From IMG/VR virus record IMGVR_UViG_3300017917_004390, positions 29,193-93,192 of that record: DNA of 64,000 nt, one strand, 5' to 3'. The notes beneath the pieces are model-generated. The model saw nothing but the letters and a program-made list of their open reading frames with translations. It did not search any database and was not told the origin of the DNA. The position numbers were made by a program, and so were the translations under genes. The DNA is from a virus. Below are positions 4,943 to 51,025 of this stretch, piece after piece; the first letter of the stretch is position 1, and each line of letters begins with the position of its first letter.

Positions 4943-5116
4943 TTATTTATAGTATACTTCTTTTAGTAATTGACGACCATCACTAGTGACCATTTTTTTG
5001 TCTAATAATTCATATCGTTCAATCAACCCATCTTTTTCAGTAATTATAACCTGCTCGTCATCAATATTTAGAGCCTGTTTTAATTTTTTTTCCATTTCTT
5101 TATCTTTAGGTTCCAT
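4943..5116 (-). CDS. Small hypothetical protein, 57 residues
   Basis: An ORF below usual length cut-offs starts MEPKDKEMEKKLKQALNID and ends LLKEVYYK. It is highly charged, with a helical N-terminus followed by a short strand-turn-strand (EQVIITEKDGLIERYELL). The copy of the late-promoter motif at 5127-5140 directly before its ATG and the tight packing between neighbours on the same strand support it as real. No family is recognised. Confidence 0.6.
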   Translation of the reverse strand: MEPKDKEMEKKLKQALNIDDEQVIITEKDGLIERYELLDKKMVTSDGRQLLKEVYYK

Positions 5117-5126
5117 AACTATTTTT

Positions 5127-5140
5127 ATATTAAATAGTTA
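5127..5140 (-). promoter_or_regulatory. Late-promoter-like motif upstream of the 57-residue gene
   Basis: Minus strand TAACTATTTAATAT lies 11-24 bp before ATG 5116, right after the stop of the gene upstream (5141). Confidence 0.55.
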
Positions 5141-5773
5141 TTATTTTTTTAGATTTATAAAAAATGGTATATTTTTTTCTAATATAAAACGGTCCATGTT
5201 AGGAAATAAAGAAATGAAAAAATCTCTAACTTCACCCTTTTTATCTATAAGACAGTTAAAATTGTTATTAAGATATGTCAAAAATTCTAATTTAATATCT
5301 TCAAATATTTGATAATTTCTAATATCTATTATATAAATTAAGTCCGTATAAATATATACGGTATTGTTATAATAATAAATATTTTTTACTGTTTCTTGAT
5401 TAAAGAAGTCAATAACTTTGTCAATATTATCAAACTCAGGGGTAAAAAATGGGTCAATTATTTTAAATTTATTATCAACTATCAATAAATCAGGTATAAC
5501 ATTAAGAAACTCTTTAAATCCATTAATAAAATAATTTAAAAATTCTTTAGGGTTAAAACACCAATATGTTTTATTATTAATTTTATAATTTTCAATTTCT
5601 ATATTAGGATAAATAGATTTAGCATATTCATAACCAACTATTAATGTTGGAATTTCATCATTAATATAATTAGAATGAAAATGTAAATATTTAAGCAATG
5701 AACTATATTCATAAAAAGTATTTAAATAATTATCATCTTTTGATAAGCCGCAAACATTAGCTATTTTATACAT
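5141..5773 (-). CDS. Hypothetical tail/baseplate-operon protein, 210 residues
   Basis: The sequence begins MYKIANVCGLSKDDNYLNTF and is rich in aromatic residues (Tyr, Phe) with alternating hydrophobic strands such as VYIYTDLIYIIDI. Its start overlaps the stop of the giant hub protein gene at 5773, so it is probably made with it. Position downstream of the hub gene suggests a baseplate or assembly role, but no T4 homologue could be recognised by eye. Confidence 0.6.
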   Translation of the reverse strand: MYKIANVCGLSKDDNYLNTFYEYSSLLKYLHFHSNYINDEIPTLIVGYEYAKSIYPNIEIENYKINNKTYWCFNPKEFLNYFINGFKEFLNVIPDLLIVDNKFKIIDPFFTPEFDNIDKVIDFFNQETVKNIYYYNNTVYIYTDLIYIIDIRNYQIFEDIKLEFLTYLNNNFNCLIDKKGEVRDFFISLFPNMDRFILEKNIPFFINLKK

Positions 5774-8700
5774 TATAATGAATTAATACGTTGATAATCA
5801 TAAACTCCGTTTCTAATATACCCATATTTTTTCATAAATTTCTCAACTTGCATTATAACCCCTGATAATATTTCATCATAATTTGGTGCGGCTGCATATC
5901 CATCTAATTTCATCATTTCAGCTATTTTATAATATAAATCAGGGTCAGAATATTGAGGTTCACCTTTATTTTGTAAATTATTATTTACTAATATATTAAT
6001 ATTTCTATAGATGTTTGATTTAGGGTTTAATAATAAGTCACTTAATGCTTTCACACCTTCATACCTAGTTTTATAAGCTCTGAACTTGGCAATATAAACT
6101 ACTATATAATTATTAGTAGTACCTTTCATTTTCTGTGTTTGACCTATTTCTTTTTGTTTTAAATCAAAAATTACCGGTTCAGTTATTATATTACCGTTTT
6201 CAAAATATTTTGAATCTGTAGTGATTCGGTTATTAACTGTCTTTACTAGTTCACCTTTATGATTATAAAAACCAAGTATATTATTTACTCCGGTATAATT
6301 AATATCGTTTGTTGATAAACTATCTTTATTTGATTTATATATATCACTATTTTCTTTAACTTTTGAGGCTTTTACTATATTAAAATAGATATTATATTTA
6401 TCATCTGTTAATAATTTTTCATCACCGCTTTCAAGTATCATAGTAGCTAATGTATTTATAGCTGGAAATCCTGTTTGTTTTTGTACATCGAAAGCATCTT
6501 TAAGGTATTTATTAATAACATTTTCTCTTCTATTACCACCAGTGTTTAAATCTTTATCTCTATCAGTTTTTATATTAGGTTTTCTAACAAAAATAGTACT
6601 ATTAAAGGTAGAAAGAATATCCTCATTAATTTTATTAATAGTATTAGTATATTTATTATTTTTATTGTATAACATATAAGGTTGGTCAACAATAGGTAAT
6701 GTGTTTCTACTAATTCTATAAGCTTTAAATGATGTTTTTAACTGATTTGACGAATCAATTGAATGTGTTGTTGAATATAACATATAAAATCCATTGAAAA
6801 GCGGGTTATTTGTTAAAACACAGTATTGTGTTGGCTGTATAGTCATACAGCCATGTGGTATTGTTGAAGAAATACTATAACTTCTTTTTTTATACAATGT
6901 TAATAAAGATTGACCTTTTGGTAAACTAAAGCTATTACTCTGGTTATTAATAATACTAGATGTAATTCTTAAAGATTCATCAGTATTTTTATAATCTTCA
7001 GTACTAAATCTAAAATCATTAAAAAATGCTTGATTTTGTATGCCAGTATAATTAATAATAAAACCTCTAACATTAGTATTTAGTAAATCAGAAGGTATAT
7101 TATCAATTGTGACTCCATCATCAGGTATTAAATCATTTGTTTTAAGTGATTTGGACAGTCCTCCCACATAAATACATAAAAATTGTGGTTGAGTGTTTTG
7201 AACTTTAATTTCATTTGATAACCGAAATCCATCTGACCATTTTTTAGGGTCATTAAATAAACCTAAATTTTGAAAAGGATAAAACCAAAAATTATTCTTG
7301 GTCAATATATTTGAAATAACTGAAAGTACTGACATTTTACTATCAGTTGAATCATCAATCATACTACTAAGGTCTAATATGCACTTTTTAGATATATCAT
7401 TAAAGTTTCTATCAACAAAATTAAAAGTATCAATAGTTTTAGTATTATTACCATTAACCCTTGCATAATAATTCTCATATATCATCTGAAAACTATTATA
7501 TAATTCAAGTTTTAAATCATTATCTAACACATTGGACTGAAATTCTTTACTTAATTCAGCTATTCTTTTATTATCTGATGTTATTTGAGAATTTAATTCC
7601 GTTAATAAACTAAAAAAGTACTTATTAAATAAAGTATTACCCAATAAATTATTAGGTACAAATTTGTTTGTATCATCAACATAATTAATATTAGGTTCTG
7701 AATCACCAAAAACTGATGTATCATTAACCACAATATAATATTTACCCTCAAACCTGTTGGTTTCAGTATTAAAAACACCGAATATATCATTAATAATATC
7801 AGTTTCTTTTTTACTCCTATTTTTATTAAAGGCTATTAAAGTATCATTATTTATATTATAAGAAGATAAAAAATCAGAATAAACTTTAATACAGTTTTTG
7901 AAAAAATTACTGCTCTTATAAAATATTAAACTTGAAGATAAAAATATATTTGATTTGATAGTGAAATATACATTATTATCTAATTGCTCAGATAAAAATC
8001 TATAACCTAAATTTAATATTAAACCTAATGGAACTTCTAAAATTGAATTTTTACTAAATCTAAAACTATTATACTTACCAAATAATAATATTAAATCTTT
8101 GAATTTAATATTATTATCAATATTAATATCTTTTTCATTATAAATTTGAGTAATATCAGAACTTTCAACAATAAAATCACTTACTGTATCTACAGTAAGG
8201 TTATCTTTAACAAAAAGTATATTTTCCTTAGTGTAAACTTGTGATTTATTTTTAATAAATGTATTTAAAAGACTATTATCGTTAGTAGTTGTATTATCAA
8301 CTAAATCAATATTAATCTCATCATCTGAAAATAATAATAAACTATTAACATCGGATGAATAATTAGTGAAAGTTGTATTACCTATATTAATATTTGACGT
8401 GCCAAATTTTGTTGTTTGTGAATAAACTTCGGTTGTTGATGGGTTATTAAGTAAATAATTACCAACATTTGATTCACTACGAATATCTCTGTATAAATTA
8501 CTAAAAAAATTCTTAGTTTGTTTATTATCTTTAATTGATGTTAATATATTAATAGCTTCATCTTTAGATTTTTGTAATAAAAAATCATTATCAAACTCAA
8601 TATGATTAGTTCCTTTATTAATAAAAACAATATATCTTAGTATTATTAATTTTAATAGTTCATTAACATTATTAGTATTACTAAGATAAGGATTTATTAA

Positions 8701-10260
8701 TTCGGGTTCATTAAAAATATTATAGTTTTTGTAGTATTCATAAGGATTTAATGGGATATAATTATTAGGATTATTAATATTTGGATTGTTAAGTGTATCT
8801 TCATAGAGTTTTTCATTAATTTGTTCATTAACCATTGATTGAACAAATTTTTCAATAAATTGAACCTCAGGCCAAGTTTTAAAAGCTGGTATTGAACCAG
8901 GATAAACTAAATTATTATTGTTAACAACAGTGGGAAATCCTAACTTACCAATAATATTAGGTACATTTCTATTCTGATTAGAACCTAAATCACCAGAAGT
9001 TTTAATTTCATTAATCAAATAATCATAATCATTCATTAAAACTTTAAAAACATTATAGGCTGTTTGTTTTTCATTATCACCTAAAAATTTTCTAGTTACA
9101 TTTGTAATTTTAGTTTCTAATTCTTGATTAAAAGTTTTACTTTTATTTAATACCTCATTTCTAAGATTTTCGATATAAGAAAATAAATCTCTATATTCAA
9201 GAGTAATTTTATTATAAGATGTATTATATATAATTTGAATTAAATCCCTAGGTGCATCATTTTGTTCTAATGAATTTCTAAATGATTGTTGTATAGCATC
9301 AAAATAAGGTTTATATTCATCTTTATTTGTAGGATATTTTAGATTAACCAAATTAAAAATTAACTGTCTACCTTTATTTGAGTTTACAACATTATTAGTT
9401 ATATCATTTATTATATTTTCATTTGGATTCAATATTTGAGTTAAATCCGATTTAATAGATTCTTTACTAATATATGAGTTTAATAAATCTGTTAAATTGT
9501 TATAAATACTAGTTTTAGATTCTATTTCATTCCTTTTTCTTTTTTCTTCATCACTTTCTTCAATTCTCTTAATATTGTTATAAAGAGATTTTAATCTATA
9601 AAGTAAATCGTAGACACTAACAACCTCACCATCTGATGTACTTTTAAGTCCTTTGTAAAAATGAACAGCCTTTAGATAATTGAAAAGTATATCAGTCATA
9701 CTACTAAATTTATCGCCAACAAATTTAGCTTTAATAATATGATTTCCACTATTTGAATCCACTTCAACTGTGGTGTTACCTTGAATCATTAATCTAAATT
9801 CAACAAGCGGTCCGTAAGCACCTTTAATTCTTAATTTAAAAATTGGAGGTGGTAAATCAAAAAGTGAATTAAATTTACTATTTGAATCTTGAATACTATT
9901 ACCTTTTACATCAATAAAAGTTATATTAACTATTGGTATTTTATTTGCATCAATATTTATATTGATATCTTGAATACCAAAACCTTCATATGTATCATTA
10001 GTTGTATCTGGTCCAACAATATATTCAGTATATCTAGTTGAATAATATTTATCATCAGAATTAATAAAACCTTGTAAATTAATAGTTTCTGGTTTAGAAT
10101 TAGAAACATCAATAGTATTATCTGAACCAATATTTATAATTGATTTACTTCTTTTATAAATTAATAATTCTACAAAAGGTTTAATATCTTCAATTTTATT
10201 GATAAGATTATAGATATCAGTATTATCAATATCATTAGGATTTATTAAATAGTTATTCAT
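5773..10260 (-). CDS. Giant baseplate hub-like protein with C-terminal glucosaminidase domain
   Basis: This is a 1495-residue protein. The long N-terminal part is Asn/Ile-rich and virion-like. A hub-type module lies near residues 1080-1200, with SFSLPKGQSLLTLYKKRSYS and FNGFYMLYSTTHSID, resembling gp27-type or LysM-proximal tail hub segments. From about residue 1290 to the end the sequence fits the FlgJ/Lyz-like glucosaminidase family (PF01832): TGFPAINTLATMILESG carries the expected catalytic Glu, followed by KYNIYFNI, FRAYKTRYEGVKALSDLL and a late LDGYAAAPNYDEIL. Such a domain cuts peptidoglycan during tail penetration. The OB-fold spike protein at 46.3 kb has no lysozyme domain, so this fusion may supply it. 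Domain call is by motif; the N-terminal assignment is weaker. Confidence 0.72.
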   Translation of the reverse strand: MNNYLINPNDIDNTDIYNLINKIEDIKPFVELLIYKRSKSIINIGSDNTIDVSNSKPETINLQGFINSDDKYYSTRYTEYIVGPDTTNDTYEGFGIQDININIDANKIPIVNITFIDVKGNSIQDSNSKFNSLFDLPPPIFKLRIKGAYGPLVEFRLMIQGNTTVEVDSNSGNHIIKAKFVGDKFSSMTDILFNYLKAVHFYKGLKSTSDGEVVSVYDLLYRLKSLYNNIKRIEESDEEKRKRNEIESKTSIYNNLTDLLNSYISKESIKSDLTQILNPNENIINDITNNVVNSNKGRQLIFNLVNLKYPTNKDEYKPYFDAIQQSFRNSLEQNDAPRDLIQIIYNTSYNKITLEYRDLFSYIENLRNEVLNKSKTFNQELETKITNVTRKFLGDNEKQTAYNVFKVLMNDYDYLINEIKTSGDLGSNQNRNVPNIIGKLGFPTVVNNNNLVYPGSIPAFKTWPEVQFIEKFVQSMVNEQINEKLYEDTLNNPNINNPNNYIPLNPYEYYKNYNIFNEPELINPYLSNTNNVNELLKLIILRYIVFINKGTNHIEFDNDFLLQKSKDEAINILTSIKDNKQTKNFFSNLYRDIRSESNVGNYLLNNPSTTEVYSQTTKFGTSNINIGNTTFTNYSSDVNSLLLFSDDEINIDLVDNTTTNDNSLLNTFIKNKSQVYTKENILFVKDNLTVDTVSDFIVESSDITQIYNEKDINIDNNIKFKDLILLFGKYNSFRFSKNSILEVPLGLILNLGYRFLSEQLDNNVYFTIKSNIFLSSSLIFYKSSNFFKNCIKVYSDFLSSYNINNDTLIAFNKNRSKKETDIINDIFGVFNTETNRFEGKYYIVVNDTSVFGDSEPNINYVDDTNKFVPNNLLGNTLFNKYFFSLLTELNSQITSDNKRIAELSKEFQSNVLDNDLKLELYNSFQMIYENYYARVNGNNTKTIDTFNFVDRNFNDISKKCILDLSSMIDDSTDSKMSVLSVISNILTKNNFWFYPFQNLGLFNDPKKWSDGFRLSNEIKVQNTQPQFLCIYVGGLSKSLKTNDLIPDDGVTIDNIPSDLLNTNVRGFIINYTGIQNQAFFNDFRFSTEDYKNTDESLRITSSIINNQSNSFSLPKGQSLLTLYKKRSYSISSTIPHGCMTIQPTQYCVLTNNPLFNGFYMLYSTTHSIDSSNQLKTSFKAYRISRNTLPIVDQPYMLYNKNNKYTNTINKINEDILSTFNSTIFVRKPNIKTDRDKDLNTGGNRRENVINKYLKDAFDVQKQTGFPAINTLATMILESGDEKLLTDDKYNIYFNIVKASKVKENSDIYKSNKDSLSTNDINYTGVNNILGFYNHKGELVKTVNNRITTDSKYFENGNIITEPVIFDLKQKEIGQTQKMKGTTNNYIVVYIAKFRAYKTRYEGVKALSDLLLNPKSNIYRNINILVNNNLQNKGEPQYSDPDLYYKIAEMMKLDGYAAAPNYDEILSGVIMQVEKFMKKYGYIRNGVYDYQRINSL

Positions 10261-20316: not shown

Positions 20317-20333
20317 CTATTTATAATAAATAG
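20317..20333. promoter_or_regulatory. Palindromic late-promoter-like element between divergent genes
   Basis: CTATTTATAATAAATAG reads as CTATTTATTATAAATAG on the other strand, so the motif is present in both directions between genes starting at 20304 (minus) and 20342 (plus). Confidence 0.6.
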
Positions 20334-34437: not shown

Positions 34438-34737
34438 ATGAATGATAAAGCTATTGAGATTTTAAGAACTCCTAAATTTGATTTAGAAAAAATGAATAAC
34501 GCTACTTTGGTAGAGTATGTTAATACATTAGCTGATTTCGAAGAAAAACTAAAAACGGAGTATCTTACCCAAGTAAAGAATGTTAAAGATTCTATAACAG
34601 AAAATACCTCTATGTTTCATATTGAAAAAAATAAAGAGTATCTTTTAAATTTGAGTAACATTTTAGATAATCAAGTTGTTTTAATAGAAAACAAATGGTT
34701 AGAATGTATAACAATTTTACAAGAGAGAGCTAAATGA
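34438..34737 (+). CDS. Hypothetical small helical protein, 99 residues
   Basis: Starts MNDKAIEILRTPKFDLEKMN and is wholly helical and charged. Its end overlaps the sigma-factor start by 4 bp (ATGA). The short upstream gap carries GTATATTAGATT; the 10-mer GTATATTAGA also occurs before the exonuclease gene at 29224. It could act with the sigma factor as a cofactor, but that is only suggested by coupling. Confidence 0.55.
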   Translation: MNDKAIEILRTPKFDLEKMNNATLVEYVNTLADFEEKLKTEYLTQVKNVKDSITENTSMFHIEKNKEYLLNLSNILDNQVVLIENKWLECITILQERAK

Positions 34738-35585
34738 AACAACTTAACACTAAAAACGTTAAAATAACTAACAGAACCGAAAATACCGTTAGATTATTCA
34801 ATGATTTAAAAAAATATCGACCTTTAACCGCTGAAGAAGAACTTGAACATTTTAGATTATACAGAGAAGAAGGTAATCAAGAATCTAAAAATATACTGAT
34901 ATTAAGTAACATCAAATTAGTTATTAGTGCAGCTAAAAATTATTCTAACAACACTTTTTTAACTTTTGAGGACCATATTTCTAATGGTATGGTAGGTTTA
35001 ATGAGGGCGTTAGATAAATTTGATACAACTAAAGGTTATAGGTTTATTACATACGCTATTAGTTATATAAACCAGAGTATTTTATATCATATTTCAGAAC
35101 ATAATGTAGTTATTAGAAAACCAAATGATAAAACTCAGTTATACCATAATATAAATAAAGAACGTGACAAAATTTATCAAGAGTATGAAACTGATGGTAC
35201 CTTAGAAATGGTTGAAAATAACTTGAATGAAGACATCACTACTAACGAATCAAAACTTAAATCTTTAGAAATATCTGATTTTTTAAATTTTAAATCTTTA
35301 GATTCTTCTTTATCTGAAACAGATGAAACACAATTAATAGATGTTGTACCTAATCCTGATGCTGATTTTACAAATGTTTATGATGATGAGTACAATAAAA
35401 AATTCTTATCAGTACGTTTAAAAAGACTTACAGGCGAAGAAAGAACTATTATTGAAGGTTTATATGGGTTGAAAGGTCAGAAGTTGAATACAGAGGTTTT
35501 AGCAGAGAAATTAGGTAGAAGTGTTAGTCATGTTAAATCAGTTCAAAATCGTAGCTTAGAAAAACTTAGGAAAATGTCAGTATGA
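34734..35585 (+). CDS. Sigma-70 family RNA polymerase sigma factor
   Basis: The 283-residue protein has sigma region 1.2/2 features: YRPLTAEEELEHFRLYREEG, SNIKLVISAAKNYSNNTFLT, then NGMVGLMRALDKFDTTKGYR and FITYAISYINQSILYHI. This is the '-10' recognition helix pattern. Region 4 (LSVRLKRLTGEERTIIEGLY ... AEKLGRSVSHVKSVQNRSLE) carries the HTH for '-35' contact. Region 3 is replaced by an acidic linker. It resembles bacterial primary-type factors more than T4 gp55. It could direct host polymerase to phage middle or late promoters. Translationally coupled to genes on both sides. Confidence 0.85.
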   Translation: MKQLNTKNVKITNRTENTVRLFNDLKKYRPLTAEEELEHFRLYREEGNQESKNILILSNIKLVISAAKNYSNNTFLTFEDHISNGMVGLMRALDKFDTTKGYRFITYAISYINQSILYHISEHNVVIRKPNDKTQLYHNINKERDKIYQEYETDGTLEMVENNLNEDITTNESKLKSLEISDFLNFKSLDSSLSETDETQLIDVVPNPDADFTNVYDDEYNKKFLSVRLKRLTGEERTIIEGLYGLKGQKLNTEVLAEKLGRSVSHVKSVQNRSLEKLRKMSV

Positions 35586-36523
35586 TATATGATATATTAA
35601 ATGAACTATTAGGTCGAGAAAAAAATAAAAATATCGGAACAAATTTGAAGTACAATTGCCCTAATTGTACTTCAAATAATTTTGGTGTTCCTGATAATAA
35701 ATATAATCTCGAAATAACATTAAATAATGAAAATCCTAGAATACCTTATAAGAAGCTTTACCATTGCTGGTCTTGTGGTATATCAGGTGAGTTATTTAAA
35801 TTAGTAAGAAAATATGGTGATTCAGATTTAATAAAAAGGTATAAAGAAAAAGAAAATGATATTCTGGTAATAAAGAATAGAAAAAAATACCTTAGATTAC
35901 CAAAAGAATTTATATCATTCAAAAATATTGATAAAAATAATCCACAACATTTAGAGGCTTATAATTATCTAACAATAGATAGGTGTTTAGATGAAAAAAC
36001 CATATTAAAAGATAATATCGGTTTTTGTCTTGAAGGTTTTTATAAAAAAAGAATTATTATACCCACCTATGATATTAATGGGAGATTAAATTTCTTTTTT
36101 ACTAGGAACTATGATAAAAATAGTAATGAGAAATATCTTAATTCAAATGTACCTAGAAACGAGATTATTTATAACGAACATAATATAAATTGGAATTCTA
36201 CTATTTATTTAGTAGAAGGATATTTTGAAGCTAAATCATTACCTTTGAATACTATTATATTAAATGGTAAAGCTTTAAGTCCTTTATTATCAGACAAGAT
36301 TCTTACATATAAACCTAATGTTGTTATTTGTCTAAATAAAGATGCTATTAAAAAAACCAATCAGAACTCAATTAATTCGACTATAGCTATCAAAGAATTT
36401 TTAGAAAAATATAATATAAATGTAAAATATCTTGATTATCCTAATAATGATGATTTGAATAAAACATTAAAAACCTCAGGAAAAAATGGTATAATAGTAT
36501 TATTAAAGGAATTTTTACAATAA
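35582..36523 (+). CDS. DNA primase with zinc finger and TOPRIM domain
   Basis: The 313-residue protein has an N-terminal zinc ribbon (YNCPNCTSN and HCWSCGISGELF, about residues 23-65) and a catalytic part with KRIIIPTYDINGRLNFFFTR. A TOPRIM core follows (STIYLVEGYFEAKSLPLNTI, then ILNGKALSPLL and VVICLNKDAIKK). This is the DnaG/gp61-type arrangement that makes RNA primers for lagging-strand synthesis. It overlaps the sigma gene by 4 bp. The helicase partner is not in the window. Confidence 0.82.
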   Translation: MIYDILNELLGREKNKNIGTNLKYNCPNCTSNNFGVPDNKYNLEITLNNENPRIPYKKLYHCWSCGISGELFKLVRKYGDSDLIKRYKEKENDILVIKNRKKYLRLPKEFISFKNIDKNNPQHLEAYNYLTIDRCLDEKTILKDNIGFCLEGFYKKRIIIPTYDINGRLNFFFTRNYDKNSNEKYLNSNVPRNEIIYNEHNINWNSTIYLVEGYFEAKSLPLNTIILNGKALSPLLSDKILTYKPNVVICLNKDAIKKTNQNSINSTIAIKEFLEKYNINVKYLDYPNNDDLNKTLKTSGKNGIIVLLKEFLQ

Positions 36524-36548: not shown

Positions 36549-37142
36549 ATGGTAGTTGATAGAGAAGTTGATGAAAATATTATATATAAAAAATATAACA
36601 GTAAAATTTTTGGATTGTTTTTTTCCAAAACTAATAATTACGACCTTAGCAGAGATTTAACTGCGGAAACTATAACTAAGGTTATTTTAAATTATAAAAG
36701 TAAGAAATATAATAAACTAACTCTTGATAATTATGTATTTAATACCGCTAATAATAATTTTGTAGATTATCTTAGAAAAATAAATAGAAAAAAAAGAATA
36801 CCACAAAATTTATTTACTAGTATAAATACACCTGAGGAATATCAATATCTTGATGAAGAAATAAATGTTAAACCTAAAAATATTAAACCTTTTGAACAAA
36901 ATACTGATTGTAATTATATGATGAATTACAATATTAGTGAAATGTTCAATTCCGTTAAAGATAATATGATGCATTGTGAAAATATTTCTTTAAAAAAATA
37001 TTTTGAATTCAAATATCTGAAACATTTGAGTGATAAGCAGATAAAACAAAAAATGAAAATCAATGATAGTGAAATAGAAAAAATAGATACCGAATTATTA
37101 AATTTCCTAAAAAAACAGAACCTACAAGAACTATTTACTTAA
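36549..37142 (+). CDS. ECF-like sigma factor, candidate late sigma (gp55 analogue)
   Basis: The 197-residue protein shows a sigma region 2-like order: KKYNSKIFGLFFSKTNNYDL, SRDLTAETITKVILNYKSKK, then LDNYVFNTANNNFVDYLRKI. This resembles the ECF pattern 'DLTQETF.k' followed by 'wl..ia.n...D..R'. The C-terminal half has a weak region 4-like helix set (HLSDKQIKQKMKINDSEIEK). With the first sigma gene 1 kb away, it is a candidate for reading the recurring AT-rich late-promoter motif. The call is moderate because conservation is low. Confidence 0.58.
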   Translation: MVVDREVDENIIYKKYNSKIFGLFFSKTNNYDLSRDLTAETITKVILNYKSKKYNKLTLDNYVFNTANNNFVDYLRKINRKKRIPQNLFTSINTPEEYQYLDEEINVKPKNIKPFEQNTDCNYMMNYNISEMFNSVKDNMMHCENISLKKYFEFKYLKHLSDKQIKQKMKINDSEIEKIDTELLNFLKKQNLQELFT

Positions 37143-38194: not shown

Positions 38195-39142
38195 ATGGAA
38201 AAAATATTAGAACAAAACGAAAATAGATTTGTATTATTCCCAATACAACATCAAGACTTATGGGATTTATATAAAACAGCTGAGGCTGCTTTTTGGACAA
38301 CTCATGAAATTGATTTATCTAACGACATGAAAGATTGGGAAAAATTAACTGAAAATGAAAAATTCTTTATTAAAAACATCTTATCATTTTTTGCTGCATC
38401 AGACGGTATTGTAAATGAAAACTTAGCTGAAAACTTCCTTAGAGAAGTTGGTTATCCTGAGGCCAAGGCATTTTATGGATTTCAAATTATGATGGAGAAT
38501 ATTCACTCAGAAATGTATTCTTTATTAATTGATACTTACATTAAAGACCATACGGAAAAGATGGAATGTTTTAATGCCTTACAAAAACTTCCTATTGTAG
38601 CTAAAAAAGCTAAATGGGCTTTAGATTGGATTAAATCTGATAGTTTTGCAGAAAGACTAGTTGCTTTTGCAGCAGTTGAAGGTATTTTCTTTTCAGGGTC
38701 ATTTTGTTCAATTTTTTGGTTGAAAAAAAGACAACTAATGCCGGGTCTGTGTGATTCAAATGATTTCATTTCTCGTGATGAAGGTATGCATTGTGATTAT
38801 GCTATCCATCTATTAAATAATCACATCGAAAATAAACCATCTAAAGAGAAAATTCGTGAAATTTTCTTATCAGCGTTGGAGATTGAAAAAGAATTTGTTA
38901 GTGATTCACTACCTGTATCATTAATTGGTATGAATAAAGAACTTATGATTCAGTATCTTCAGTTTGTTGTTGACCAACTTTTAGTAAAGTTAGGTTGTTC
39001 AAAAGAATTTAATGTTACCCAACCTTTTGAATTTATGAATAATATTGCTTTGCAAGGTAAGAAAAACTTCTTTGAAAGAAGACCTAATGAATATAAAAAA
39101 GCCAATTTAACTGATAAAATAAGTTTTGAAGAAGATTTTTAA
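38195..39142 (+). CDS. nrdB: Ribonucleotide reductase class I beta subunit
   Basis: The 315-residue ferritin-like protein has the iron and radical residues in order: [20 protein letters not shown], then [20 protein letters not shown] (E-x-x-H plus the radical Tyr region), [20 protein letters not shown], and [20 protein letters not shown]. It supplies the tyrosyl radical to NrdA for dNTP synthesis from host ribonucleotides. It starts the RNR unit and is followed after 2 bp by the split nrdA. Confidence 0.93.
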
Positions 39143-39144
39143 TT

Positions 39145-40716
39145 ATGATTATTACAAAAAGAAACGGAACAAAAACAGAATTTAACCCTAATAAAATTCG
39201 TAATAGAATTAAAAAACAATCAGTAAATTTAAATATTGATACTGATAAATTATTCTTTTCAGTTATGAAAGGTATAGCTGATGATATGACTACAAAACAA
39301 ATTGATGATTTGATTGCTGAAACATCAGCATCAATGACAATGATTCATCCAGATTATTCAATATTAGCTGGAAATATTTGTATTAGTAGATTACATAAAG
39401 AAACTGAAGATGACATAATGAAAGTCTATAAAAAATTATATAAAGCAGATGCTTTAGATGAAGATTTTTATGAAAATCTTAAAACTCATTATCAGGATAT
39501 TAAAGACAAACTAGATTACACCAAAGATTATGGTGTAGATTATTTTGGTTGGACTAGATTACAAGAAGTGTATTTATTAAAATTAGGTGATGAAGTTGTT
39601 GAACGACCACAACAAATGTTTATGAGGGTTGCTTTAACAATTCATAAAAAAATTGAAGATATACTTGAACTATATTATGAATTATCAAATAAATATATTT
39701 CTAAGGCTACACCTATTTTAATTAATGCTGGTACTGATGTTAAGAGTTTGATATCGTGCAACTTAACTTTTAATAAGGGCGACACTACTGAGGACTTGCT
39801 TAAAACCATTAATAATATCGCTGTTAGCTCATCAAGAGCCGAAGGTATTGGATTAGCTATGCATAATATTCGTTCTAAGGAATCATCAGTAGGTAAGGGT
39901 TCTGGTAAAGCAGGTGGATTGTTGAAATACATTAAAGTTGTTAATGAAGCACTTCGTTTTTGGAACCAAAAAGGTAAAAGACCCGGTGCAGCGGCAATTT
40001 ATCTTGAACCTTGGCATAAAGATGTTTTTGACCTTCTTGATATTAGAAAAAATACAGGTAAAGAAGAACTAAGAGCAAGAGATTTATTCAGTGCTATGTG
40101 GACCTGTGATTTATTTATGGAGGCTGTTGAGAAAGATTCTGATTGGCATCTATTCTGTCCTAATGATATTAAAAAAGCTGGATTAAGACCTTTCTATGAA
40201 TTATATGGTGAAGATTTTAAAACTGAATATAATAAAGCTGTTGAATTGGGAATCGGTAAAAAAATTAAAGCACAAGACCTTTGGTATAAAATTTGTGAAT
40301 CTCAAATTGAAACTGGTATACCTTATATTGGATTTAAAGACCATGTAAATAGAAAGTCAGCACAAAAAAATATTGGTACCATTAAAAGTTCTAATTTATG
40401 TTTAAGTGAAGATACTGTACTTGATGTTATTATTGATGAAAAAAATGAAAAAATCGATATAAAAACTTGTATTGAATTACTTAAAATAAAAGATATTTTT
40501 GTTAAATCTTATGATATTAAAACTAATACAATTGAGTATCAAAAAATAACTAACGGTGCTTTAATGTCCAAAAAAGCGGAAGTATTAGAAATTATTGATG
40601 ATGAGACTGGTAAAAAAATAATTTGCACCCCTGAACATAAAATTTTTACCAAAAATAGAGGATATGTAATGGCAAAAGATTTGTTAGAAAGTGATAATTT
40701 ATGTGTTGATTTTTAA
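39145..40716 (+). CDS. nrdA: Ribonucleotide reductase alpha subunit, N-terminal part fused to N-intein
   Basis: Residues 1-418 are the NrdA N-extein: an ATP cone (MIITKRNGTKTEFNPNKIRN), the redox Cys region (KSLISCNLTFNKGD), GSGKAGGLLKYIKVVNEALR, and GRPGAA-like PGAAAIYLEPWHKDVFDLLD, ending NIGTIKSSNL. Residues 419-523 are an N-intein: block A CLSEDTVLDVII starting with the nucleophilic Cys, and block B IICTPEHKIFTKNRGYVMAK. The frame then stops inside a hairpin loop. The insertion lies directly before the cysteine of SNLCxE, which in E. coli NrdA is the catalytic thiyl radical Cys439. Activity therefore requires trans-splicing with the C-terminal product at 41794. Confidence 0.9.
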   Translation: MIITKRNGTKTEFNPNKIRNRIKKQSVNLNIDTDKLFFSVMKGIADDMTTKQIDDLIAETSASMTMIHPDYSILAGNICISRLHKETEDDIMKVYKKLYKADALDEDFYENLKTHYQDIKDKLDYTKDYGVDYFGWTRLQEVYLLKLGDEVVERPQQMFMRVALTIHKKIEDILELYYELSNKYISKATPILINAGTDVKSLISCNLTFNKGDTTEDLLKTINNIAVSSSRAEGIGLAMHNIRSKESSVGKGSGKAGGLLKYIKVVNEALRFWNQKGKRPGAAAIYLEPWHKDVFDLLDIRKNTGKEELRARDLFSAMWTCDLFMEAVEKDSDWHLFCPNDIKKAGLRPFYELYGEDFKTEYNKAVELGIGKKIKAQDLWYKICESQIETGIPYIGFKDHVNRKSAQKNIGTIKSSNLCLSEDTVLDVIIDEKNEKIDIKTCIELLKIKDIFVKSYDIKTNTIEYQKITNGALMSKKAEVLEIIDDETGKKIICTPEHKIFTKNRGYVMAKDLLESDNLCVDF

Positions 40717-40731
40717 AACAACACATAAATT
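40696..40731 (+). terminator. Perfect 13-bp hairpin around the stop of the NrdA N-part
   Basis: AATTTATGTGTTG (40696-40708) pairs with CAACACATAAATT (40719-40731) around a 10-nt loop holding the TAA stop. There is no long T-run, so it may stabilise the 3' end or act as a weak terminator. Confidence 0.5.
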
Positions 40732-40757
40732 TCTACTATTTACTATAAATAGTAGAA
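40731..40757 (+). promoter_or_regulatory. Perfect 12-bp hairpin with late-promoter-like motif before the endonuclease gene
   Basis: TTCTACTATTTA (40731-40742) pairs with TAAATAGTAGAA (40746-40757) around CTA, and ATG 40758 follows immediately. The stem contains the ACTATTTA core on both strands. T4 homing endonuclease genes also use late promoters with hairpins that mask the translation start. Confidence 0.6.
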
Positions 40758-41792
40758 ATGGAAATACAACGCTATACTAGAATAGATTTATTATACGATA
40801 ATGAAGAATTTTTAATTAATTTTGATAATGAGTTAAAAACACATTTACAAAATACTATCATGAATAAAAAAGAATATTACCGAGCTTTAAAATTTTTATA
40901 TAATAAAAATATTAAATCTTTTAAAGATTTCACTGATAAATATTCAAATGATGGTATTTACAAAATATGGAATAATACGAATTTTATTTTTAAAGATTTA
41001 GAAACTAAATTAAAATATATGATAATACCTTTTAAAGGTAAGAAAAGACCTAAACATTCTGAAATGATGAAAATAAAAATGTTGGGTATCGATAGAGGTG
41101 ATAATTTTAGAAAAATAAAAAATGAACAAAATAAAAGTATTAATTTCAAGAAAAAATTTTTACAAAATAAAAATATTAATATTGAAAATAAAACTGATGA
41201 AGAAGTATATAATATATACTGTGAATACATATCAAAAAGAAATAAAAGTGAAGAATTTAGAATAAATAAAATTAAAAAATTTTTAAAAAATGATAAATAT
41301 AAAAATGAAGAATTATATGAATATTTCAAAAATAAATATTTAAATATTAAATTAGATAATAAAAATTATGAAGAAATATATAGTGAAATGCTTAGTTTAA
41401 TTTCAATTATTGCTATTAAAAATAACGGCAATATGGGTAAAACTAATTATTTTAAAAAGGGTTTAATTAATACTAAATATTGTTTAAATAAAAGTATTAT
41501 AAGTTTTAGAAGTTCTTGGGAAGAAAAAACTATTCAATTTTTAGAAGAAAATAAAATAAAATACGAATATGAACCGATATATTTAGTCACTGATAATCAT
41601 AGATATTATTTACCTGATTTTATATTACCGGACCTTAAAATTATGCTAGAAATAAAAGGTTTTATTAGAGGTAAAGAAGGTGAAAAGAATGAAGAATTTA
41701 AAATTAAAGCGGCAAAACGCTATTGCGAAAAAAAGGGATTAAAATTTATTTATTTAAAAAACATATTAACAAATTTAAAACAATTAAATTAA
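40758..41792 (+). CDS. Free-standing homing endonuclease (Vsr/EDxHD-like) between split nrdA halves
   Basis: The 344-residue basic protein has no LAGLIDADG or GIY-YIG motif. The N-terminal 240 residues are Lys-rich and helical, with KGKKRPKHSEMMKIKMLGID resembling DNA-binding NUMOD-type segments. Residues ~250-335 form a Vsr/PD-(D/E)XK-like nuclease: SFRSSWEEKTIQFLEENKIK, then YEPIYLVTDN, YYLPDFILPD and IMLEIKGFIRGKEG, ending with a helix-strand (AKRYCEKKGLKFIYLK). The same endonuclease type is known from fractured genes with split inteins (I-Bth0305I family). It promotes spread of the whole insert by cutting intein-less nrdA. Confidence 0.8.
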   Translation: MEIQRYTRIDLLYDNEEFLINFDNELKTHLQNTIMNKKEYYRALKFLYNKNIKSFKDFTDKYSNDGIYKIWNNTNFIFKDLETKLKYMIIPFKGKKRPKHSEMMKIKMLGIDRGDNFRKIKNEQNKSINFKKKFLQNKNINIENKTDEEVYNIYCEYISKRNKSEEFRINKIKKFLKNDKYKNEELYEYFKNKYLNIKLDNKNYEEIYSEMLSLISIIAIKNNGNMGKTNYFKKGLINTKYCLNKSIISFRSSWEEKTIQFLEENKIKYEYEPIYLVTDNHRYYLPDFILPDLKIMLEIKGFIRGKEGEKNEEFKIKAAKRYCEKKGLKFIYLKNILTNLKQLN

Positions 41793-41793
41793 A

Positions 41794-42939
41794 ATGGGTA
41801 TAAAAATTAACAAATTAACAACAAATATTCCAGTTTATGATATAACTGTCGAAAAAAATCATAATTTCTTTGCTAATGATATATTAGTACATAACTGTAT
41901 AGAAATCGTACAATATTCCGACCCTGAAACAACAGCACAATGTATTCTTAGTTCATTAGTATTACAATCATTTATTAAAAATGGTAAATTTGATTTTGCT
42001 AAATTAATCGAAAGTACAAGAATTATTGTAAAGTCTTTAAATAACCTCATTGATATCAATGAATATTCAACAGTAGAAGCCCGTAAAGGAGCCTCAGAGC
42101 AACGAGCTATTGCTATTGGTGTACAAGGTCTAGCTGATGTATTTGCTATCCTTAAACTTAGTTTTACATCGGAAGAAGCTAAGAAATTAAATAAAATGAT
42201 ATTTGAAACTATTTATTTTGCAGCATTAACAGAGTCAAATAGATTAGCTAAAGAAAATGGTATTGTTTATAAATATTTCAAAGGTTCACCATATGAAGAA
42301 GGTATTTTACAATTTGATATGTGGGGGTTAACTAAAGATGATTTACTTTGTGGTTATGATTGGGATTCACTAAAAGATTCTATTAAAACATATGGGTTAG
42401 CTAATTCATTAGTTACAGGTGCAATGCCTACTGCTAGTTCAGCAATTATCATTGGTTCTAATGAATCTTTTGAACCGTTTACTTATAATATTTATACCAG
42501 AGCAGGTATTGGTGGCGAACACATTATTATCAATAAATATTTAGTAAAAGAACTATCTGAAAGAGGCTATTGGATTGATGAAATCAGAAATGAAATTATT
42601 AAAAACAAGGGTTCTATCCAAAATATTCCTGTTTTAGATGATGATATTAAAGAACGTTATAGAACAGTATTTGAAATACCACAAAAAGAACTTCTTAATA
42701 TGGCTGCGGATAGGGGTGCTTTTATTGACCAATCTCAAAGTATGAATTTATATATGTCTACACCTACGATTGGTAAGTTAACTTCATCGCATTTCTATGC
42801 ATGGAAGAAAGGACTTAAAACGGGTGTTTATTATTTAAGAACTGAGGCTGTTGATAAGAAAACAACACACTTAGCTATCGATACAACAGAAAATAAAACT
42901 TCTAACGGTGATATAGATTGTTTTGGTTGTACAGCTTAA
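41794..42939 (+). CDS. nrdA: C-intein fused to ribonucleotide reductase alpha subunit, C-terminal part
   Basis: Residues 1-34 are the C-intein (VYDITVEKNHNFFANDILVHN, blocks F and G with the terminal HN). Residue 35 is the +1 Cys, which becomes the catalytic cysteine of SNLC-IEI. The C-extein follows: AQCILSSLVLQSFI (redox Cys), GVQGLADVFAILKL, GAMPTASSAIIIGSNESFEP and the C-terminal redox tail DCFGCTA. Joined to the 418-residue N-extein it gives a 765-residue NrdA, close to E. coli NrdA (761). It starts 1 bp after the endonuclease gene. A bidirectional terminator follows. Confidence 0.9.
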   Translation: MGIKINKLTTNIPVYDITVEKNHNFFANDILVHNCIEIVQYSDPETTAQCILSSLVLQSFIKNGKFDFAKLIESTRIIVKSLNNLIDINEYSTVEARKGASEQRAIAIGVQGLADVFAILKLSFTSEEAKKLNKMIFETIYFAALTESNRLAKENGIVYKYFKGSPYEEGILQFDMWGLTKDDLLCGYDWDSLKDSIKTYGLANSLVTGAMPTASSAIIIGSNESFEPFTYNIYTRAGIGGEHIIINKYLVKELSERGYWIDEIRNEIIKNKGSIQNIPVLDDDIKERYRTVFEIPQKELLNMAADRGAFIDQSQSMNLYMSTPTIGKLTSSHFYAWKKGLKTGVYYLRTEAVDKKTTHLAIDTTENKTSNGDIDCFGCTA

Positions 42940-50980: not shown

Positions 50981-50990
50981 TCTACTTTTT

Positions 50991-51019
50991 TTAATAAATA
51001 GAAAGAAACTATTTATTAA
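50991..51019. promoter_or_regulatory. Divergent pair of late-promoter-like motifs as an 11-bp inverted repeat
   Basis: TTAATAAATAG (50991-51001) and CTATTTATTAA (51009-51019) are perfect inverted copies 7 bp apart. The minus gene begins at 50980 and the plus gene at 51026, each 7-12 bp from its motif. Confidence 0.65.
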
Positions 51020-51025
51020 AAAGCT

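What the first reader, a model, noticed from the sequence alone, without database searches (positions are those of the whole stretch)
40696..40757. Two back-to-back perfect hairpins controlling the homing endonuclease gene
A 13-bp perfect stem encloses the stop of the NrdA N-part, and a 12-bp perfect stem with a 3-nt loop ends at the base before the endonuclease ATG and contains the late-promoter-like motif. In T4, homing endonucleases (for example I-TevI) are silenced on early read-through transcripts by a hairpin and expressed from a late promoter inside it. The same logic seems to have arisen here in a different endonuclease family.
Basis: partly seen in the sequence, partly recalled or inferred. 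Interest (0 to 1): 0.6.

Follow-up and report, generated by a model that had tools for sequence, protein, structure and literature searches.

The report
Hairpin-and-late-promoter switch for homing endonuclease
A phage gene split by a self-joining protein element carries a DNA-cutting parasite gene whose start is locked in an RNA hairpin, with a late-type promoter inside it that should bypass the lock, and the same arrangement recurs in front of unrelated DNA-cutting genes at equivalent spots in many other phages.

Summary
The hairpins are real. Hairpin 2 is 14 bp, not 12: arms 40729-40742 and 40746-40759, loop CTA, with the A and T of the endonuclease ATG (40758) in the stem. Hairpin 1 is 13 bp with the NrdA-N stop in its loop. 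Perfect stems this long are expected about 0.1 times per 64 kb. The context is a fractured nrdA: NrdA-N plus intein N-half, a freestanding T7-endonuclease-I-like gene, intein C-half plus NrdA-C. This phage's own late-type motif, CTATTTAtaATAAA (15 of 89 genes, 0.7 expected; also at head and sheath genes of Flavobacterium phage immuto), lies in the LEFT arm, 22 nt before the ATG. RNA started there lacks the left arm and frees the ATG (opening cost 9.5 versus 2.0 kcal/mol). Leaders of 33 non-redundant ORFs between split-intein halves show the same signature: fold z median -4.2 versus 0.15 in control genes, TATAAATA 48% versus 5%. It spans GIY-YIG, HNH, LAGLIDADG and PD-(D/E)XK nucleases; nine split inteins without a full endonuclease gene have no TATAAATA. 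The logic is known from T4 I-TevI and Aeh1 mobE, so this is a new variant of a known kind. Expression is untested.

The parts
40696..40731 (+). Hairpin 1: 13-bp perfect stem, 10-nt loop with the stop codon of NrdA-N; role open
40729..40759 (+). Hairpin 2: 14-bp perfect stem, loop CTA, start codon A and U paired; proposed translation lock
40736..40749 (+). Promoter-like motif CTATTTActATAAA in the left arm, loop and right arm start; proposed late promoter, RNA start about 40747-40750
   Evidence: matrix trained without this site ranks it 15th of 186,328 positions; 22 nt from ATG; same sense motif in phage immuto
40744..40751 (+).
   Evidence: enriched before starts only 4 versus 1.06 expected in this record
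40758..41792 (+). Freestanding endonuclease gene, 344 aa, C-terminal T7 endonuclease I-like PD-(D/E)XK domain
39145..40716 (+). NrdA N-part fused to intein N-half (intein starts at Cys codon 40399)
41794..42939 (+). Intein C-half fused to NrdA C-part (extein resumes at Cys codon 41896)
38195..39142 (+). nrdB, upstream gene of the same direction; no CTATTTA motif in its leader or nrdA's
40688..40709 (+). Sequence resembling the intein-less nrdA site (15 of 17 over the core), possible operator; weak lead

Best explanation
Hairpin 2 is a timing switch for a mobile endonuclease gene inserted between the halves of a split intein in nrdA. RNA that reads through from nrdB/nrdA contains both arms, so the start codon is buried in a 14-bp stem and the endonuclease is not translated. 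Later, the phage's late-type transcription recognises ACTATTTActATAAA in the left arm and loop and starts RNA near 40747-40750. That short RNA lacks the left arm, its start codon is free, and the endonuclease is made. NrdA is meanwhile restored by protein trans-splicing of the two intein-tagged parts. Shown here: the sequences, the predicted structure, the promoter motif statistics, and recurrence across phages and nuclease families. Inferred: that the motif is active and late, where RNA starts, the repression, trans-splicing and homing.
For: Stem beyond chance and covering the start codon. Phage-wide sense motif CTATTTA before 15 of 89 genes versus 0.7 expected, including sheath and baseplate genes; endonuclease site ranks 15th of 186,328 with a matrix trained without it and has the usual distance to ATG; same motif at late genes of phage immuto. 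Opening the start region costs 9.5 kcal/mol in long RNA, 2.0 in short. Across 33 non-redundant ORFs between split-intein halves, leaders fold far better than control genes (median z -4.2 versus 0.15, p 4e-11) and carry TATAAATA in 48% versus 5% (p 1e-9), also against free-leader genes and same-operon intein C-half starts. TATAAATA in none of nine split inteins without a full endonuclease ORF. No terminator signal at the hairpins. T4 I-TevI, where this mechanism was established, folds the same way with its promoter in the left arm. Structure near the start codon tunes initiation in Flavobacterium (PMC6847099).
Against: No RNA or protein data. No intact relative of this endonuclease was found, so the window hairpin itself has no covariation test. 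Two overlapping promoter readings exist. Exact TATAAATA is absent from half of the other leaders, and several (L054, L057, L096, L106) have no clear hairpin. Hairpin 1 is not explained.
Confidence: 0.78

Rival explanations
1. The palindromes are DNA sites for a protein, for instance an operator where the endonuclease represses its own promoter as I-TevI does; RNA folding is incidental.
For: Bases 40688-40709, overlapping hairpin 1, resemble the intein-less nrdA site: tied fourth best match in the record, and 8 of 1500 random 40-mers match the leader as well. I-TevI binds an operator resembling its homing site (PMC2988022).
Against: The match is upstream of the promoter motif, not on it, lies in intein coding sequence and was found post hoc. 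Across other loci the signal is weak and not corrected for base composition. Hairpin 2, the better conserved kind of feature, does not resemble the site.
Confidence: 0.15
2. Hairpin 2 is only a by-product of two overlapping inward-facing promoter motifs, a bidirectional promoter, with no role as RNA.
For: The 17-nt core CTATTTA-CTA-TAAATAG reads as the motif on both strands (minus strand ranks 19th), and a similar core lies between divergent genes at 20317-20333.
Against: The stem continues perfectly beyond the motif, TTTCTA pairing with TAGAAA and on into the ATG. No gene start for an antisense RNA is nearby. In other phages one promoter motif lies in the loop and a stem at the start region is still there.
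Confidence: 0.08
3. The hairpins end or stabilise the NrdA-N transcript (terminator, attenuator or 3'-end protection).
For: Hairpin 1 holds the NrdA-N stop codon in its loop; two stems in tandem could block exonucleases.
Against: No terminator-like site here in the scan and no T-run after either stem. NrdA-C must be expressed from downstream, so ending RNA here would harm NrdA supply. Stems at other loci sit on the endonuclease start, not on the stop codon.
Confidence: 0.08

Closest known systems
I-TevI leader in the td intron of phage T4 (also I-TevII, I-TevIII, segB)
   Same: Stem burying the translation start on read-through RNA; late promoter inside the stem, in I-TevI in the left arm as here; endonuclease embedded in a nucleotide-metabolism gene (PMC2988022, PMC3014915)
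   Different: Group I intron or intergenic setting, Shine-Dalgarno buried, GIY-YIG or HNH nuclease, T4 late promoter; here split intein, no Shine-Dalgarno, T7-endonuclease-I-like nuclease, TATTTATA-type motif
mobE in nrdA of Aeromonas phage Aeh1
   Same: Freestanding endonuclease splitting nrdA, leader hairpin and late promoter (PMC2988022; PMC3653736)
   Different: HNH nuclease; NrdA there works as gene pieces according to the reviews; here both parts carry intein halves
Fractured genes: split inteins separated by freestanding endonuclease genes (Dassa and others 2009, cited in PMC3653736)
   Same: Same gene order, in nrdA, in environmental phages
   Different: I could not read that paper; I found no mention in the held library of hairpins or late promoters at these genes
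T7 endonuclease I (phage Holliday junction resolvase)
   Same: C-terminal catalytic domain with the PD...ExK signature
   Different: Long extra N-terminal part; sits inside a split-intein gene rather than among recombination genes

Membership tests
T4-type hairpin/late-promoter endonuclease leader | Stable RNA stem that covers the translation start of the endonuclease | tested here: met
   14-bp stem includes AU of the AUG; z -6.0 alone
T4-type hairpin/late-promoter endonuclease leader | Late promoter placed so that its RNA lacks the 5' arm | tested here: inconclusive
   Motif in left arm matches the phage's own late-type motif; that it is active and late is not shown
T4-type hairpin/late-promoter endonuclease leader | Hidden Shine-Dalgarno sequence | tested here: not met
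   No Shine-Dalgarno before the gene, and only 4 of 91 genes have one; the start codon itself is buried
T4-type hairpin/late-promoter endonuclease leader | Long RNA untranslated, short RNA translated | not testable with these tools
   Only predicted opening energies, 9.5 versus 2.0 kcal/mol
Split-intein fractured gene with freestanding endonuclease | Intein N-half ending in a stop and C-half with its own start, at one extein site | tested here: met
   SNL|CLSEDT and LVHN|CIEI junctions; Pfam intein domain matches both parts, below its cut-off
Split-intein fractured gene with freestanding endonuclease | Intact endonuclease ORF between the halves | tested here: met
   344-aa ORF, T7 endonuclease I family above the Pfam cut-off
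Split-intein fractured gene with freestanding endonuclease | Trans-splicing restores NrdA | not testable with these tools
   Needs expression of both parts
Homing endonuclease | Cuts the endonuclease-free allele and promotes its own transfer | not testable with these tools
   Position in a split intein and a decayed relative at the same site in L002 are indirect support

The most novel reading that the evidence does not exclude
A start-codon hairpin with a late promoter inside is a general, repeatedly acquired regulatory unit of endonuclease genes that live between split-intein halves, across at least four nuclease families and in phages with different promoter motifs and translation signals; the leader itself may be passed between nuclease families, since the window leader resembles that of a GIY-YIG gene (score z 6.2; 0 of 300 shuffles reach the maximum).
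Probability: 0.55. Interest if true: 0.65.

Novelty: new variant of a known kind. Interest (0 to 1): 0.55.

Why it matters
It ties two known oddities together: genes broken by split inteins, and the T4 trick of hiding an endonuclease start in a hairpin that a late promoter bypasses. If true, delaying the endonuclease is a near-general requirement for living inside a split-intein gene, met by several unrelated nuclease families. The window case suggests that it can run on start-codon burial alone, in a phage without Shine-Dalgarno sequences and with its own late-type promoter motif. It also gives a recognisable mark for finding such elements and a direct test of when these genes switch on.

Tried and rejected
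Relatives of the window endonuclease by protein pattern in viral contigs: none. In isolates only its catalytic domain matches, in Bacillus phage resolvases. Relatives of the window capsid in viral contigs: none. Intrinsic terminator at the hairpins: none. Host-type Bacteroidota promoter TTTG/TAnnTTTG in leaders: not enriched. Covariation within the large GIY-YIG leader group: leaders nearly identical, so no formal count was made; instead, conservation starts abruptly at the left arm. Operator test across loci: own-site ranks skew low but base composition is not controlled, kept as a lead only. Structure prediction of the endonuclease without an alignment was poor (mean pLDDT 41.8) and is not used. 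Dassa 2009 and the two Gibb and Edgell papers were not held, so they are cited through reviews.

Full report
WHAT IS THERE. The window is bases 29193-93192 of a 93,192-base virus record of a T4-related myovirus: gp23-like head protein, sheath, baseplate wedge and PhoH. Among isolates with a named host its head protein is nearest to that of Flavobacterium phage immuto, about 35% identical over part of the protein. Only 4 of 91 genes have a Shine-Dalgarno-like sequence, and leaders are A-rich, as in Bacteroidota, whose initiation is tuned by RNA structure near the start codon (PMC6847099). At 38195-42939 lie nrdB, nrdA-N with an intein N-half, a 344-aa endonuclease gene, and an intein C-half with nrdA-C. 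The intein sits just before the Cys of SNL|C, the active-site Cys of class Ia reductase by my knowledge of the family. The endonuclease has a T7-endonuclease-I-like domain.

THE HAIRPINS. Both are perfect and exceed chance. Hairpin 2 is 14 bp and takes in the first two bases of the start codon. Its left arm begins 12 nt after the stop of NrdA-N. I infer that a ribosome ending there would touch hairpin 1 but leave hairpin 2 folded.

THE PROMOTER. Scanning intergenic leaders gave CTATTTA as a strongly enriched word (10 leaders, 0.65 expected). Within 40 nt of a start it precedes 15 of 89 genes against 0.7 expected, in sense direction, 15-29 nt from the ATG, followed by an AT-rich tAATAAA. Genes with it include the tail sheath, a baseplate wedge gene and phoH. 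A matrix trained without the endonuclease site places 40736 (+) 15th of 186,328 positions, 22 nt before its ATG. In phage immuto the same sense motif, (C)TATTTATAA(A)TAAA, precedes gp20, sheath and other head and tail genes. So in this lineage the late-type motif reads TATTTATA, and TATAAATA in sense may be its mirror. The nrdB and nrdA leaders lack it. The phage encodes a sigma-70-like protein at 34734-35585 and a weaker one at 36549-37142, candidates for reading it.

HOW IT WOULD WORK. With RNA start about 13 nt after the motif's first base (T4 geometry, my knowledge), the short RNA begins near 40749 with a 9-nt leader. Opening the start region costs 9.5 kcal/mol in the long form and 2.0 in the short. 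If TATAAATA were used instead, the RNA would be nearly leaderless; the logic is the same.

RECURRENCE. Scans with reductase fragments and with intein N- and C-half alignments gave 181 intein half pairs: 151 split with an ORF between, 13 split without one, 17 contiguous. After an offset filter the 147 remaining ORFs reduce to 33 clusters at 80% identity. Their leaders fold far better than control genes (median z -4.2 versus 0.15, p 4e-11) and carry exact TATAAATA in 48% versus 5% (p 1e-9). One of the two controls with both features, L131+3773, is itself such an ORF. The result stands against genes with free leaders (p 2e-8) and against intein C-half starts in the same operons (none of 30 with z below -3). 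In 16 leaders with exact TATAAATA the start region costs a median 11.5 kcal/mol to open in long RNA and 2.2 in short. Leaders with both features (11 of 33) occur with GIY-YIG, HNH and LAGLIDADG nucleases and the PD-(D/E)XK gene of the window. Nine distinct split inteins without a full endonuclease ORF have no TATAAATA. L002 keeps a remnant of the window's endonuclease family at the same site, without the hairpin. In the large GIY-YIG group conservation begins sharply at the left arm, as if the hairpin were the edge of the mobile unit. Isolates Yersinia phage TG1 (12-bp stem over an AAGGAG, TATAAATA in the loop) and Klebsiella phage KP13-7 (14-bp stem) have it too.

WHAT IS KNOWN. The same logic was worked out for T4 I-TevI and described for I-TevII, I-TevIII, segB and Aeh1 mobE (PMC2988022, PMC3014915). 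Folding the T4 I-TevI leader here shows its promoter in the left arm, as proposed for the window. Split-intein fractured genes with freestanding endonucleases are also known (Dassa 2009, via PMC3653736). I found no paper in the held library that joins the two, but the key original papers were not held. Hence: new variant of a known kind.

LEADS. Bases 40688-40709 resemble the intein-less nrdA site (15 of 17 over AAAGTgaTAATTTATGT), tied fourth best in the record, with 8 of 1500 random 40-mers matching the leader as well. This recalls the I-TevI operator but was found post hoc. The window leader aligns with a GIY-YIG leader better than shuffles do; part of that may come from shared promoter and palindrome constraints.

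LIMITS. All functional steps are inferred. Controls come from the same loci. Start codons of other endonucleases were taken as the first ATG of the longest ORF. Exact TATAAATA is missing from half of the leaders, some with one mismatch and some with other motifs. Related sequences are reduced to 80% clusters, but 18 of the 33 still fall in one linked family, so the p-values overstate independence.

Noticed in passing
window 35643-35677: 15-bp perfect hairpin (z -9.4) inside the primase-like ORF 35582-36523, about 60 nt from its start, over codons for LKYNCPNCTSN; may be chance in a zinc-site coding stretch or regulatory.
   Followed up: partly
window 50988-51022: 14-bp hairpin between divergent genes made of two outward-facing CTATTTATTAAAA promoter motifs.
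   Followed up: partly
window 8082-8117: 15-bp perfect hairpin inside ORF 5773-10260 on the minus strand.
   Followed up: no
window-wide; L239 (phage immuto): Late-type promoter motif (C)TATTTATAATAAA 15-29 nt before starts, shared by this phage and Flavobacterium phage immuto head/tail genes.
   Followed up: yes
window 34734-35585 and 36549-37142: A sigma-70-like protein with regions 2 and 4, and a second ORF with a weak region 2 match; candidates for the phage's late sigma factor.
   Followed up: partly
L002 7200-7840: Decayed relative of the window endonuclease (51% identity over 60 residues) at the same split-intein site in nrdA of another phage, with no hairpin left.
   Followed up: partly
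L060, L064, L068 (about 5080-6100): Split inteins with an ORF between the halves in a gene whose junction (VDC...YRGE) looks like dUTPase; hairpins in some, exact TATAAATA absent.
   Followed up: no
L131 3773 and 5502: Two different fractured split inteins in tandem in one gene, each with its own ORF between the halves.
   Followed up: no
window 40752, minus strand: The palindrome also gives an antisense copy of the promoter motif, 19th best in the record, pointing into nrdA-N.
   Followed up: no
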